Origin: Thermomonas beijingensis
GTDB lineage: Bacteria; Pseudomonadota; Gammaproteobacteria; Xanthomonadales; Xanthomonadaceae
Direction: 5' to 3'
NCBI RefSeq assembly: GCF_020034655.1
Contig: NZ_JAIQDJ010000011.1
Span: 1-64,000 of the forward strand
DNA length: 64,000 nt
The notes below the pieces were generated by a model, which saw nothing but the letters and a program-made list of their open reading frames with translations, was not told the DNA's origin and made no database searches. Of the stretch, positions 28,828-35,638 are shown one piece after another. How positions within the stretch are numbered: the first letter of the stretch is position 1; each line of letters opens with the position of its first letter. The position numbers and the translations under genes are program-made.

Positions 28828-31800
28828 ATGAATACCCCCACCGCCCAGCTTCCAACCACGGCTTCCACTGCACTGGACGAACACCGCAGCCCGCTGCGCT
28901 TCGTCACCGCCGCCAGCCTGTTCGACGGCCACGACGCCGCCATCAATATCATGCGCCGGCTGATCCAGGCGCAGGGCGCGGAGGTCATCCACCTGGGCCA
29001 CAACCGCAGCGTGGAAGACGTGGTGCGCGCGGCGCTGCAGGAAGACGCCGACGCCATCGCGCTGTCCAGCTACCAAGGCGGCCACGTCGAGTACCTGAAG
29101 TACATGGTGGACATGCTGAAGGCGCGCAACGCCGCGCACATCCGCGTGTTCGCCGGCGGTGGCGGCACCATCACCCCCGAGGAAATCCGCGAGCTGGAAG
29201 CTTACGGCGTCGAACGCATCTACCACCCGAACGACGGCATGCACATGGGCCTGGTGGCGATGATCGAGGACGTGGTCAAGCGCGCCGAGGCCGCGCGCCA
29301 GCCGGTCGACAAGCCGCACAAGGTGGCCTTCGACAACGAGATCGAGATCGGCCGCATGCTCAGCGCCATCGAGGAACAGGCGCTCGACGAAAGCGAGCTC
29401 GCTCACCTGCGCAAGGAATGGCAGCTGGCCGGCGGCAAGACCCCGGTGGTGGGCATCACCGGCACCGGTGGCGCCGGCAAGTCATCGGTCACCGACGAGC
29501 TGCTGAACCGCTTCCTGTCCAGCTTCCCGGACATGCACATCGCGGTGGTCAGCGTGGACCCGACCCGCCGCCGCACCGGTGGCGCACTGCTGGGCGACCG
29601 TATCCGCATGAACTCGCTGCGCAGCAAGCGCGTGTTCATGCGCTCCATGGCTACCCGCCGCCAGCACGCCGCCACCAACGTGGTGCTGCAGGACTGCATC
29701 GCCTTCCTGAAGTCGCTGGGCTATGACCTGGTCATCGTGGAAACCGCCGGCATCGGCCAGAGCGACTCGGAGATCGTGGACCTGGTCGACTTCCCGATGT
29801 ACGTGATGACCAGCGACTTCGGCGCGCCCAGCCAGCTCGAGAAGATTGACATGCTGGACTACGCCGAACTCGTCGTGCTCAACAAGTTCGACAAGCGCGG
29901 CGCCGAGGACGCCCTGCGCGACGTGCGCAAGCAGTGGAAGCGTAACCGCGTGAAGTTCGACTTGAAGGACGAGGACGTCCCGGTCTATCCGACGATTGCC
30001 AGCCAATTCAATGACCCCGGCCTGAACTGGATGTTCGCCAACCTGTGCCGCCTGCTGCGCGAGAAAGGAAAAGGGGGTCAGAGTCACTTTTCGGATGCAG
30101 GCAGTGCTGGTGGCGGTGAGGGTGAGTCGAAAAGTGACTCTGACCCCCTTTTCCCGGTCCCGACCATCGACACCACCCTCAAGGAGCCCCGCGCCACCGT
30201 GCTCATCCCCGGCGCGAGGGTGAGGTATTTGGCCGAGATCGCCGAGCAGGGCCGCGGCATCAACGCCCGCATCGAATCGCAGGCGGAGATCGCCGACCGC
30301 GCGCAGTCGCTGTGGGACGCGCTGAAGGAGCTGGGCGACGACAAGCTGCCGAACGCACTCGACCTCTACGCCGCCGACGCGCTGACCGAAGGCGACGACC
30401 GCAGCCTCAAGACCCTGCGCCAGCGCTACAACGACGCTATCCAGTCGCTGGATTCCGAGGCGCTGAAGCTGCTGCGCGACTGGCCGGCCCGCCTGAAGGC
30501 CATCACCGAACCGGTGAACGAATACCAGGTGCGCGACAAGACCATCCGGGTGGAGAACTACCGCGAATCGCTCAGCCACCAGCAGATCCCCAAAATCGCC
30601 GCGCCCACCTACAAGGCCTGGGGCGAGCTGCTGGTGTTCCTGCAGAAGGAAAACCTGCCCGGTTACTACCCCTACACCGGCGGCGTGTACCCGTACCGCC
30701 GCACCGGCGAGGACCCCATCCGCATGTTCGCGGGCGAGGGTACCCCGGAGCGCACCAACCGCCGCTTCCACTACCTCAGCCTGGGCCAGCCGGCCGCGCG
30801 CCTGTCCACCGCCTTCGACAGCGTGACCCTGTACGGCGAAGACCCGGCGCCGCGCCCGGACATCTACGGCAAGATCGGCAACTCCGGCGTCAACGTGCCC
30901 ACGCTGGACGACATGAAGAAGCTGTACTCCGGCTTCGACCTGTGCGCGCCCACCACCAGCGTGTCGATGACCATCAACGGCCCGGCGCCGATCATCCTGG
31001 CGATGTTCATGAACACCGCCATCGACCAGCAGGTGGAGCAATACCTGAAGGCCGACCCGGCGCGCTGGGCCGATGCCCAGAAGAAGATCGACGCGCTGTT
31101 CGAAGGCGACGCGTCTGGTAAAAGACGGCGCCCGCGCTACGAAGGCGAGCTGCCGCAGGGCAACAACGGCCTGGGCCTGGCACTGCTGGGCGTCACTGGC
31201 GACCAGCTGGTGGACGCCGAGACCTACGCCCGCATCAAGGCCGAAACCCTGCGCACCGTGCGCGGCACCGTGCAGGCGGACATCCTCAAGGAAGACCAGG
31301 CGCAGAACACCTGCATCTTCAGCACCGAATTCGCCCTGCGCATGATGGGCGACATCCAGCAGTACTTCGTGGACCACGCCGTCCGCAACTTCTACTCGGT
31401 GTCCATCTCCGGCTACCACATCGCCGAGGCCGGGGCGAACCCGATCAGCCAGCTGGCCTTCACCCTGTCCAACGGCTTCACCATCGTCGAGTACTACCTG
31501 GCGCGCGGGATGAAGATCGACGACTTCGCGCCCAACCTGTCGTTCTTCTTCAGCAACGGCATGGACCCGGAGTACACCGTCATCGGCCGCGTGGCCCGCC
31601 GCATCTGGGCCCGCGCCATGCGCGAGCGCTACGGCGCCAGCCCGCGCAGCCAGATGATGAAGTACCACATCCAGACCAGCGGCCGCTCCCTGCACGCGCA
31701 GGAAATCCAGTTCAACGACATCCGCACCACGCTGCAGGCCCTGTACGCGCTGTTCGACAACTGCAACAGCCTGCATACCAACGCCTACGACGAAGCCATC

Positions 31801-32364
31801 ACCACGCCCACGGAAGAGTCCGTGCGCCGCGCCGTGGCCATCCAGATGATCATCAACAAGGAGCTGGGGCTGAACTTCTGCGAGAACCCGTGGCAGGGCA
31901 GCTTCATCGTCGACAAGCTCACCGACATCGTGGAAGAGGCCGTCTACAAGGAGTTCGAAGCGATCAGCGAGCGCGGCGGCGTGCTGGGCGCCATGGACAC
32001 CATGTACCAGCGCGGCAAGATCCAGGAAGAAAGCCTGTACTACGAACACAAGAAGCACGACGGCAGCCTGCCGCTGGTGGGCGTGAACACCTTCCTGCCC
32101 AAGGAACACGGCGGCGACATCGTCACCGAGATCGAGCTGATCCGCTCCACGGAAGAGGAGAAGGGGCAGCAGATCGCGAACGTGGCGGGGTATCAGGGCA
32201 ACCGCAACGGGTTTGCTGCCGAGGGGCTGAAGGCGCTACAGGCGACGGCGCGGGAGCGACGGAATGTGTTTGAATCGTTGGTGGAAGCGGTGAAGACGCA
32301 TTCGCTGGGACAGATCAGCCATGCGTTGTATGAGGTGGGTGGGGAGTACAGACGGAATATGTAG
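28828..32364 (+). CDS. icmF: Fused isobutyryl-CoA mutase IcmF (B12-binding, G-protein chaperone, mutase)
   Basis: The 1178-residue protein joins three parts. The B12-binding domain is at about 10-150 ([15 protein letters not shown]). The MeaI-type GTPase is at about 200-410, with P-loop [21 protein letters not shown] and the NKFDKRG base-recognition motif. The mutase barrel and linker run from about 450 to the end ([41 protein letters not shown]). IcmF interconverts isobutyryl-CoA and n-butyryl-CoA, and in some members pivalyl- or isovaleryl-CoA, with adenosylcobalamin; the G domain protects and reloads the cofactor. Residues about 414-443, between G domain and linker, are encoded by a REP-type palindrome (30067-30154) and are rich in Gly, Ser and Asp. 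The frame is kept and the rest looks intact. Codons are strongly GC-ending. Confidence 0.93.
30067..30154. repeat. REP-type palindrome inserted in frame inside icmF
   Basis: Arms at 30067-30093 and 30128-30154 are perfect 27-bp inverted repeats built on GGGGGTCAGAGTCACTTTT, with a 34-base loop. The core GGGGTCAGAGTC is the same as in the palindrome at 34498-34581, which also has a 34-base loop. It is translated as part of IcmF without stop or frameshift. Confidence 0.9.
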
Positions 32365-34093: not shown

Positions 34094-34489
34094 ATGAAGC
34101 TTGTGGATGTATCCAGGCTGATAGGCAGTCTTAGTCTCGTTGTTCTACTGAAGATGATGCACTTGGTTCGCCGTGGTATGCATTGGATTGCCCTAGCGCT
34201 GGCGTTCATTGCAATTGCGGCGATCGTGAGTGTTGTAGTTCAACCGTCAGAAAAGAACAGTAGTCAATCGGCGATCGCGGGGGTCTCGCAGCAGCCGAAG
34301 CGTTTGGCGATCTTTCTCGACGGCACTTGGAATAGCGTCGATAGCAATACCAACGTCTGGCGGATGCGCGCGCTTGTTGCGCCGCAGGATTCCGATGGTA
34401 GGCCGCAGCTTGTCTATCAAAAACGGGGTCAGGTTAAACCAAAAACGGAACCAAAAACGGGGTCAGGTTCACTTATCCCGTTTCAGTGA
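34094..34489 (+). pseudogene. Truncated DUF2235 (phospholipase effector-like) gene
   Basis: ATG 34094 opens a frame with a hydrophobic segment (WIALALAFIAIAAIVSVVV, about 36-54). The start of a DUF2235 domain follows, KRLAIFLDGTWNSVDSNTNV and WRMRALVAPQDSDG, the beginning of an alpha/beta-hydrolase fold found in type VI lipase effectors. Homology breaks after QLVYQ at about 34417; the remaining codons come from REP sequence (KTGSGSLIPFQ) before a stop. The catalytic Ser and the rest are absent, so the gene is dead. RAYT-linked repeats occupy the breakpoint. Confidence 0.75.
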
Positions 34490-34497: not shown

Positions 34498-34581
34498 AAA
34501 ACAGGGGTCAGAGTCGACTTTTTCAGAGATCAGGCAGGTTGAGGTTGGTCGGCTCTAAAAGTCGACTCTGACCCCTGTTTT
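34498..34581. repeat. REP-type perfect palindrome, GTCGAC variant
   Basis: 25-bp perfect arms (34498-34522 and 34557-34581) built on AACAGGGGTCAGAGTCGACT flank a 34-base loop. Same design and loop length as the element inside icmF; a solitary arm is at 441-468. Confidence 0.85.
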
Positions 34582-34792: not shown

Positions 34793-34865
34793 GAAAAACG
34801 GGGTCAGGTTCACTTATCCGGAAAAACGGGGTCAGGTTCACTTATCCCGTTTCAGTGATTGACTT
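34793..34865. repeat. Tandem REP units at the RAYT 3' end
   Basis: Two 28-base direct units of the form GAAAAACGGGGTCAGGTTCA + CTTATCCG/C stand head to tail (34793-34820, 34821-34848), the second continuing into GTTTCAGTGATTGACTT. The RAYT stop codon and last residues are encoded inside this unit. Confidence 0.85.
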
Positions 34866-35531
34866 GGTCTTGGCCGGTCGATGCGCGGGGCGCACGCCGG
34901 CGAAGCGTTGGGTCTTGGCTTCCACCATCGCGCGGAAGGCGTCGCGGCCGTAGGCGCGTTGCTGTTGCAGGTAGAGGCGGAGGGCGGCGAGGTCTTCTTC
35001 GCCCAAGGCTTCGGCCAGCAGCGCCCGATAGCCGTCGGCGCCCAGGGCGCGTTGCACGGGATGCGGCGCCAGCAGCGGGTCGTCGCGCAGGCCGCAAAGG
35101 CCGGGGCAGCTGGACCAGGCGAACGCGGTGGGGTCGTCGGTCATGCGGGCGCGCACGGGATTGAGGTCGATGTAGCGGGCGCAGCGCAGCAGGTACTCGG
35201 TGGTGTCGACCAGGCAGGCCTTGTAGCGGCCTTCCCACAGCGTGCCGGTGCGGCCGTGGCGGGCGTTGAATTGCCCGACGTACTGGCGGCCAAGGCGCTG
35301 CATCAGCTGGCCGATGGCGCCGGTCCGCGGCGGCGTGATCAGCAGGTGCACGTGGTTGTCCATCAGCACGTAGGCGTGCAGCCGGCAGTCGCTGGCCAGC
35401 AGGGCTTCACGCAACAGTTGGCGATAGCGGGCGCGGTCCTCGTCGTCCAGGAAGCAGGGCAGGCGGTTGTTGCCGCGCTGCACGACGTGCTGCGGGATGC
35501 CGGGGAGGTCGATGCGGGGCAGGCGCGCCAT
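34842..35531 (-). CDS. REP-associated tyrosine transposase (RAYT, Y1/HUH family)
   Basis: ATG 35531 gives 229 residues, the normal RAYT length. It begins MARLPRIDLPGIPQHVVQRG, the family N-terminus. The HUH motif is His60-Val-His62 in MDNHVHLLITP. NARHGRTGTLWEGRYK and RCARYIDLNPVRARM follow, with Tyr120 a candidate catalytic tyrosine, and then the C-terminal helix LRLYLQQQRAYGRDAF. RAYTs cut REP hairpins as single-stranded DNA and are thought to spread them. The last residues SITETG and the TAA lie inside a REP unit. Many elements with the GGGGTCAG core surround it, so this enzyme or a relative is the likely mobiliser. Intact by eye. Confidence 0.93.
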   Translation of the reverse strand: MARLPRIDLPGIPQHVVQRGNNRLPCFLDDEDRARYRQLLREALLASDCRLHAYVLMDNHVHLLITPPRTGAIGQLMQRLGRQYVGQFNARHGRTGTLWEGRYKACLVDTTEYLLRCARYIDLNPVRARMTDDPTAFAWSSCPGLCGLRDDPLLAPHPVQRALGADGYRALLAEALGEEDLAALRLYLQQQRAYGRDAFRAMVEAKTQRFAGVRPAHRPAKTKSITETG

Positions 35532-35614
35532 GTCGGAAGCCTCGCCCGGGCGGCGCCCGTCGCCCATCGGCGAACGCAGGCGCTGCGGGTCGGCGAATGC
35601 GCCGCGTCCGTGTC

Positions 35615-35638
35615 AGAAGTGAACCTGACCCCGTTCTT
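35615..35638. repeat. REP half-site upstream of RAYT
   Basis: AGAAGTGAACCTGACCCCGTTCTT is the reverse complement of the GGGGTCAGGTTCACTT arm found at the other end of the RAYT gene, so the transposase gene is bracketed by oppositely oriented REP sequences. Confidence 0.8.

What the first reader, a model, noticed from the sequence alone, without database searches (positions are those of the whole stretch)
30067..30154. REP palindrome inserted in frame in icmF and translated
A perfect 27-bp inverted repeat with a 34-base loop, of the same family as the intergenic palindrome at 34498-34581, lies between the GTPase and mutase-linker parts of IcmF. The reading frame stays open and about 30 Gly/Ser/Asp-rich residues are added. 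Seen directly: the palindrome, its match to other REP elements, and the open frame. Inference: a mobile REP unit was domesticated as a flexible linker in a cofactor-chaperone fusion enzyme. A strong mRNA hairpin in mid-gene could also slow translation between domains.
Basis: partly seen in the sequence, partly recalled or inferred. Interest (0 to 1): 0.78.

Follow-up and report, generated by a model that had tools for sequence, protein, structure and literature searches.

The report
Repeat DNA recurrently translated in IcmF
In a bacterial vitamin-B12 enzyme, a short repeated palindrome of the genome has become part of the protein at a joint between two domains, and related bacteria carry quite different repeats, or none, at the same joint, so the joint looks like a natural landing place for stray DNA.

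Summary
Confirmed: a perfect 27-bp inverted repeat (30067-30093/30128-30154, 34-nt loop) lies in frame in icmF (28828-32364) and codes for residues 414-443. It belongs to a GGGGTCAG palindrome family that fits the described TIR motif of tyrosine transposases; a Y1_Tnp gene between inverted copies lies 2.5 kb downstream. It is not a single case. In 194 distinct icmF sequences the linker is 15-231 nt, divisible by 3 in all 194. By motif, the same codon position holds GGGGTCAG elements (25 of 194, strict), GTAG-type REPs (16), GGGAATC-type tandem repeats (20) or another palindrome (4), sometimes different families in sister rows; 55 of 194 have only 5-8 residues. The B12/GTPase junction has the GGGGTCAG motif in 15 of 194. 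The motif is read in one polar frame (left arm 43 of 43, right arm 37 of 38 occurrences); arm spacing is in phase in 30 of 31 icmF copies, 6 of 22 elsewhere. Best explanation: IcmF linkers tolerate short repeats that arrive in frame and polar; selection removes the rest. A domesticated function and a translational pause are untested. Protein-coding palindromes are known, so this is a new variant of a known kind.

The parts
28828..32364 (+). icmF, fused isobutyryl-CoA mutase, 1178 aa
   Evidence: 4xc6 best, E 0; B12-binding 24-127, MeaB 177-372, MM_CoA_mutase 805-1171
30067..30156 (+). repeat-derived linker, codons 414-443 (site 2)
   Evidence: the closest rows without a repeat have 8 residues here
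30067..30093 (+). left arm of the palindrome, contains GGGGTCAG; read as GKGGQSHFS
30094..30127 (+). loop, read as [11 protein letters not shown]
30128..30154 (+). right arm of the palindrome; with the base before it read as SKSDSDPLF
29299..29334 (+). site 1 (codons 158-169), B12-domain/GTPase junction; short in this genome, GGGGTCAG motif in 15 of 194 sequences
34498..34581 (.). intergenic palindrome of the same family, GTCGAC subtype
34842..35567 (-). Y1_Tnp (RAYT/TIRYT-like) tyrosine transposase gene, possible mobiliser of the family (inference)
   Evidence: PF01797, E 1.4e-13
34800..34843 (+). two GGGGTCAGGTTCACTT copies (34800-34815, 34828-34843) at the 3' end of the transposase gene
35617..35632 (-). 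inverted GGGGTCAGGTTCACTT copy 50 bp from the transposase gene's 5' end

Best explanation
The segment is a translated GGGGTCAG-type palindromic element (two inverted TIR/REP units). It entered icmF, probably through a tyrosine transposase (inferred), and stayed because it fell at an interdomain linker, in frame, in its stop-free polar reading frame. IcmF linkers of this bacterial family act as recurrent landing slots: repeats of several unrelated families enter, are replaced and are lost, and selection keeps those that give a soluble linker. Shown: the element, the open frame, the recurrence at fixed places, the frame and spacing bias, the polar loops. Inferred: translation in the cell, the transposase as carrier, near-neutral tolerance, the disordered state.
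For: 194 distinct icmF sequences: linker 15-231 nt, all 194 divisible by 3, no stop in the printed translations. Strict GGGG[TC]CAG in 25 of 194 at site 2 and 15 of 194 at site 1, 7 at both by motif, of which L171 looks doubtful at site 1. By motif at site 2: 28 GGGGTCAG-like (3 of them a half type WCQGQF), 16 GTAG, 20 tandem, 4 other. Neighbouring rows carry unrelated families: L044 (GGGGTCAG) and L071 (GTAG) at tree distance 0.043, L128/L156 0.063, L143/L165 0.065, L074/L180 0.077; L150 and repeat-free L220 0.038. Parsimony: 24 changes for 28 GGGGTCAG rows, shuffled mean 26.5. Frame, counted as motif occurrences: left arm 26 of 26 (site 2) and 17 of 17 (site 1), right arm 22 of 22 and 15 of 16; in the own element this frame has GRAVY -1.01, the other open frame +0.33, the third has stops. 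Spacing in phase 30 of 31 in icmF, 6 of 22 elsewhere, p 7e-8; for four genomes alone 6 of 6 against 6 of 19, p 0.005; loop residues hydrophobic 41 of 459 against 143 of 636 (22 other copies, both orientations), stops 0 against 10. In 74 full-length proteins, length variation of 3 or more residues between conserved blocks is confined to six short segments. Codon-position differences to G010 outside the insert 39/29/133 over 1087 codons, as under purifying selection. GTAG REPs have 3-572 matches in 14 of 14 genomes that carry them in icmF, reversed controls 0, and in G149 and G066 the icmF subtype is among the common ones listed.
Against: Gains against losses depend on cost: with gains three times as costly, 6 gains and 32 losses for the GGGGTCAG class; the tandem class is more clustered than every shuffle (15 changes, lowest shuffle 16). 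Arm spacing 66 in 26 of 31 copies could reflect common descent or gene conversion. Rows are related, so the p values are too small. The subtype in this icmF has no second copy in its own genome by the pattern used, and in G020, G257 and G396 the only two matches are the icmF ones; G399 (L092) has none, its variant escapes the pattern. Loops of icmF copies match no other copy seen in four genomes. Insertion is not specific to icmF: three helicase genes carry such elements. One site-1 element is out of frame (L067). The predicted structure is too poor to show disorder (mean pLDDT 52.7). No protein data.
Confidence: 0.8

Rival explanations
1. Domesticated linker: the segment was kept because its length and flexibility improve the hinge between GTPase and mutase, for instance for the oligomerisation that goes with cofactor loading.
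For: It sits at the G-domain/linker boundary (alignment; passages of PMC10481361, split the C. metallidurans protein at 442/443). The 90-nt insert differs from G010 at 1 position while the rest differs at 201 of 3261. Loops are polar.
Against: 55 of 194 sequences, members of the same genus among them, have 5-8 residues there; neighbouring rows have unrelated repeats or none; the inserts of two other near relatives differ at 19 and 32 of 90 nt.
Confidence: 0.12
2. An old palindrome in the slot, homogenised or swapped by gene conversion with other palindromes, rather than many separate insertions. Not exclusive of the best explanation: it may be how the slot turns over.
For: Spacing 66 in 26 of 31 copies and one frame; arms identical (36 of 36 nt) in L128, L130, L131 while loops agree at only 15-28 of 38; matching subtypes at both sites of one gene in L097 and L207.
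Against: Unrelated families, tandem repeats and repeat-free linkers in neighbouring rows at the same codon; a second site; different subtypes at the two sites of L145.
Confidence: 0.3
3. RNA-level role: the mid-gene hairpin pauses ribosomes between domains and is kept as a hairpin.
For: Strong predicted fold; perfect or near-perfect arms in many GGGGTCAG copies at the site.
Against: 80 of 194 linkers have 36 nt or less and no classified repeat; perfect arms are also seen in copies outside icmF.
Confidence: 0.06
4. Assembly artefact or broken gene.
For: L030 has masked bases inside such an element and L067 has one out of frame, both at site 1.
Against: G010 has the same element; open frames in all 194 at site 2; codon-position pattern of a constrained gene.
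Confidence: 0.02

Closest known systems
TIR elements of tyrosine transposases (TIRYT, 'TIRtrons', GGGGWSAS motif; PMC3733652, sections 15 and 16 read, passages of the rest)
   Same: GGGGTCAG fits GGGGWSAS; dimers of inverted units; a Y1_Tnp gene with inverted copies on both sides
   Different: described there as flanking transposase genes and as repeat families; here translated within a metabolic enzyme
Intragenic GTAG and CGTC REPs (PMC3733652)
   Same: palindromes within coding genes; the authors mention flexible linkers; different REPs at about the same site in recB of X. campestris and X. oryzae
   Different: there two species for that site; here many sequences, several unrelated repeat families, more than one site in one protein, and a measurable frame and spacing sieve
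Rickettsia palindromic elements (Ogata 2000, seen only through passages of PMC2229807 and PMC10969869)
   Same: palindromes of about 105-150 bp fused in frame into conserved proteins; one tested product (gmk) is active, with changed substrate affinity
   Different: spread over unrelated genes rather than piled up in one; sequences not compared here
IcmF of Cupriavidus metallidurans (PDB 4xc6)
   Same: same domain order, high sequence similarity
   Different: shorter at this point, with no segment aligned to most of the insert

Membership tests
GGGGWSAS TIR family of TIRYT transposases | GGGGWSAS motif in inverted repeat units | tested here: met
   GGGGTCAG in both arms
GGGGWSAS TIR family of TIRYT transposases | repeated in the genome | tested here: met
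   12 pattern matches in the own genome, 0 for the reversed control; the exact subtype only in icmF
GGGGWSAS TIR family of TIRYT transposases | tyrosine transposase gene flanked by the repeats | tested here: met
   PF01797 gene 34842-35567 with inverted GGGGTCAGGTTCACTT copies on both sides; the icmF subtype differs by two bases in this stretch
GGGGWSAS TIR family of TIRYT transposases | mobilised by that transposase | not testable with these tools
   needs an experiment
GTAG-tagged REP | GTAG at one end of the stem | tested here: not met
   no GTAG in the 90-nt insert on either strand (sequence); 16 of 194 sequences have a GTAG-type motif at the site
Protein-coding palindromic repeats, as a kind | palindrome within a conserved gene with the frame kept open | tested here: met
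Protein-coding palindromic repeats, as a kind | translated product present and active | not testable with these tools
   no proteomics or assay
Rickettsia RPE | sequence of a described RPE family | not tested
   no RPE sequence was compared
IcmF | B12-binding, MeaB-type GTPase and mutase domains in one chain | tested here: met

The most novel reading that the evidence does not exclude
IcmF of this family evolves its interdomain linkers in a modular way from the genome's own repeats: repeats abundant in a lineage are drawn into fixed slots, exchanged between slots and genome copies, and tuned in loop composition, so that repeat turnover sets hinge length and with it oligomerisation and cofactor loading.
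Probability: 0.2. Interest if true: 0.8.

Novelty: new variant of a known kind. Interest (0 to 1): 0.62.

Why it matters
Protein-coding palindromes are mostly known as scattered cases. One enzyme in which close relatives hold unrelated repeats, or none, at the same codon is a replicated natural experiment on what selection allows when selfish DNA enters a gene: frame, polarity and length can be measured, and natural variants can be assayed. It also warns annotators that peptides such as GQSHFS...SDSDP or VGATSVAT...VAPT at such joints are repeat-derived and not conserved domains.

Tried and rejected
Rejected: assembly error (G010 agrees); a conserved IcmF feature (absent in many relatives); GTAG REP for the own element. 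Long open frames around other GGGGTCAG copies looked at first like many more coding insertions. I scanned 21 of these frames with Pfam: 3 (an Lhr-type and two HrpA-type helicases) have domains on both sides of the element, 1 (CorA) on one side only, 17 none. Not all frames listed were scanned (for instance those of L276, L279, L281, L294, L295, L298, L300). In the own genome the palindromes of L002 and L007 lie in long frames but seem to stand between genes; this was judged by reading the frames, without Pfam, and the single match in L001 was not followed. The first tree kept variable columns of another site (446 columns); it was redone with columns filled in 95% of rows (360) and changes for the GGGGTCAG class went from 22 to 24. 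Both are quick trees. Structure prediction gave mean pLDDT 52.7, pTM 0.42; 416-442 is under 50, but so are 643 of 1178 residues, so it was not used. L014 was first put in class D and moved by hand to the GGGGTCAG class. The motif classes rest on simple patterns; some members are weak (L035, several of the tandem class).

Sampling limits: named loci are the best 80 of 544 relatives; unnamed ones are those that the capped listings showed (23 of 25 and 285 of 395 genomes have a match), 111 of them fetched. They were ranked by score to a query that itself carries the palindrome, so the shares are not natural frequencies. 252 of 264 loci had both flanks (11 of the other 12 are loci of repeat matches, not of icmF); identical ones were merged to 194. 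Loci of the order-wide search (145 of 200 genomes match) were not analysed.

Full report
Observation. The palindrome is exactly as described, the frame is open through it, the motif is far more frequent in the window than in shuffles and the RNA fold is strong. The protein is IcmF by Pfam and by its solved relative 4xc6. The insert is codons 414-443, after the GTPase domain; passages of PMC10481361 divide the Cupriavidus metallidurans protein at residue 442/443 into Cbl-binding plus G-protein domain and linker plus substrate domain, which the alignment puts at about the same place.

What the element is. Its arms carry GGGGTCAG, which fits the GGGGWSAS motif of TIRs that flank tyrosine transposases (PMC3733652, section 16). 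The window holds such a gene (PF01797, 34842-35567) between inverted GGGGTCAGGTTCACTT copies. The own genome has 12 matches to a family pattern and none to the reversed control; the pair in icmF is of the GTCACTTTT subtype, the ten others are GTCGAC or GTCGAG. G010 has the same icmF element, G020 another subtype there.

Recurrence. Relatives were gathered from named genomes (80 loci) and unnamed ones. 252 of 264 loci had both flanks and gave 194 distinct sequences; the linker is 15 to 231 nt long and divisible by 3 in all 194. 55 of 194 have 5-8 residues (24 nt in 45, 15 in 6, 21 in 3, 18 in 1). Many others hold a palindrome or repeat of another family. Pattern counts show that these sequences are repeated in the genomes concerned: GTAG type, 3 to 572 matches in 14 of 14 genomes; the GGGAATC triple repeat in 7 of 8; one CCCTCCCC palindrome in 3 of 4; the GGGGTCAG pattern in 26 of 30, where the six genomes taken as repeat-free controls have 0 to 3 matches. 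Reversed-pattern controls are 0 in all of these. Against a simple local-source picture, in G020, G257 and G396 the only two matches are those in icmF, and G399 has none because its variant escapes the pattern.

A second and further sites. The junction of B12-binding and GTPase domains has the GGGGTCAG motif in 15 of 194, seven of them also at the first site; L171 looks like a chance match. In 74 full-length proteins, length varies by 3 or more between conserved blocks at six segments: 158-169, 198-205, 413-444, 523, 760-767 and 1127-1131. Peptides at 523 and 1127 look repeat-derived as well, and GTAG motifs fall there; that those peptides belong to known repeat types is recalled, not tested.

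Selection. Counting motif occurrences, 43 of 43 left arms and 37 of 38 right arms are read in one frame. Spacing between arms is in phase in 30 of 31 icmF copies against 6 of 22 copies elsewhere. Loops in icmF have 41 hydrophobic of 459 residues and no stops; the same reading of the 22 other copies in both orientations gives 143 of 636 and 10 stops. One site-1 copy, in a metagenome-assembled Dokdonella (L067), is out of frame and may be a sequencing error or a broken gene. Rows are not independent, so these tests are indications.

History. On a quick tree without the linker (360 columns, 194 rows) the GGGGTCAG class needs 24 changes for 28 rows (shuffled mean 26.5), GTAG 14 for 16 (15.5), tandem 15 for 20 (19.3, lowest 16), other palindromes 4 for 4. 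With gains three times as costly as losses the GGGGTCAG class has 6 gains and 32 losses, so the number of insertions is not fixed; but neighbouring rows with unrelated families (L044/L071, L128/L156, L143/L165, L074/L180) need at least replacement. Arms can be identical while loops diverge (L128, L130, L131), which points to exchange with other family members or renewed insertion.

How special icmF is. Forty further regions around GGGGTCAG copies of six genomes, mainly four, were fetched. Of 21 long frames scanned, three are genes with domains on both sides of the element, all helicases; other frames were not scanned. The four genomes (G001, G263, G241, G369) each have elements at both icmF sites, but they were picked after one search had shown this, so the contrast is not a fair sample. 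icmF looks like a hot spot; it is not the only target, and how exceptional it is remains open.

Known and new. Intragenic REPs, Rickettsia RPEs and different REPs near one site in recB of two species are in print (PMC3733652 sections 15 and 16; PMC2229807 and PMC10969869, passages). Eight searches of the paper library, several with capped listings, showed no paper that links IcmF or methylmalonyl-CoA mutase with REPs; the direct one found 0 papers, and the main text of PMC3733652 has no 'mutase'. Its supplement, which lists target genes, was not seen. PMC3686654 and PMC2817692 on REPs and RAYTs were seen in the listing only. The claim of novelty is limited to the pile-up of unrelated repeats in fixed slots of one enzyme.

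Noticed in passing
34094-34489: ORF starting like a Tle1-like catalytic domain (PF09994, 26.8 bits, just under the cut-off of 27) that ends in GGGGTCAG-type repeat sequence from about 34423; it looks cut short by repeats.
   Followed up: partly
L274:337-4041, L280:3-2912, L292:3-4016: An Lhr-type and two HrpA-type helicases with GGGGTCAG elements in the open frame between Pfam domains.
   Followed up: partly
L067, site 1 of icmF: A GGGGTCAG palindrome with a length not divisible by 3 (segment of 218 nt) in a Dokdonella metagenome-assembled genome.
   Followed up: no
L030, site 1 of icmF: Masked bases inside the element.
   Followed up: no
L145 site 1; L095 site 2: Further complementary stretches outside the main palindrome, as if one element had entered another.
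   Followed up: no
icmF codons 523 and 1127-1131 in full-length relatives (L014-L093): Two more hypervariable sites with repeat-like peptides such as PSPAGRGAGGEG...PHPNPSPEGRG and PAQAGTQR...LDPRLRGDDD.
   Followed up: partly
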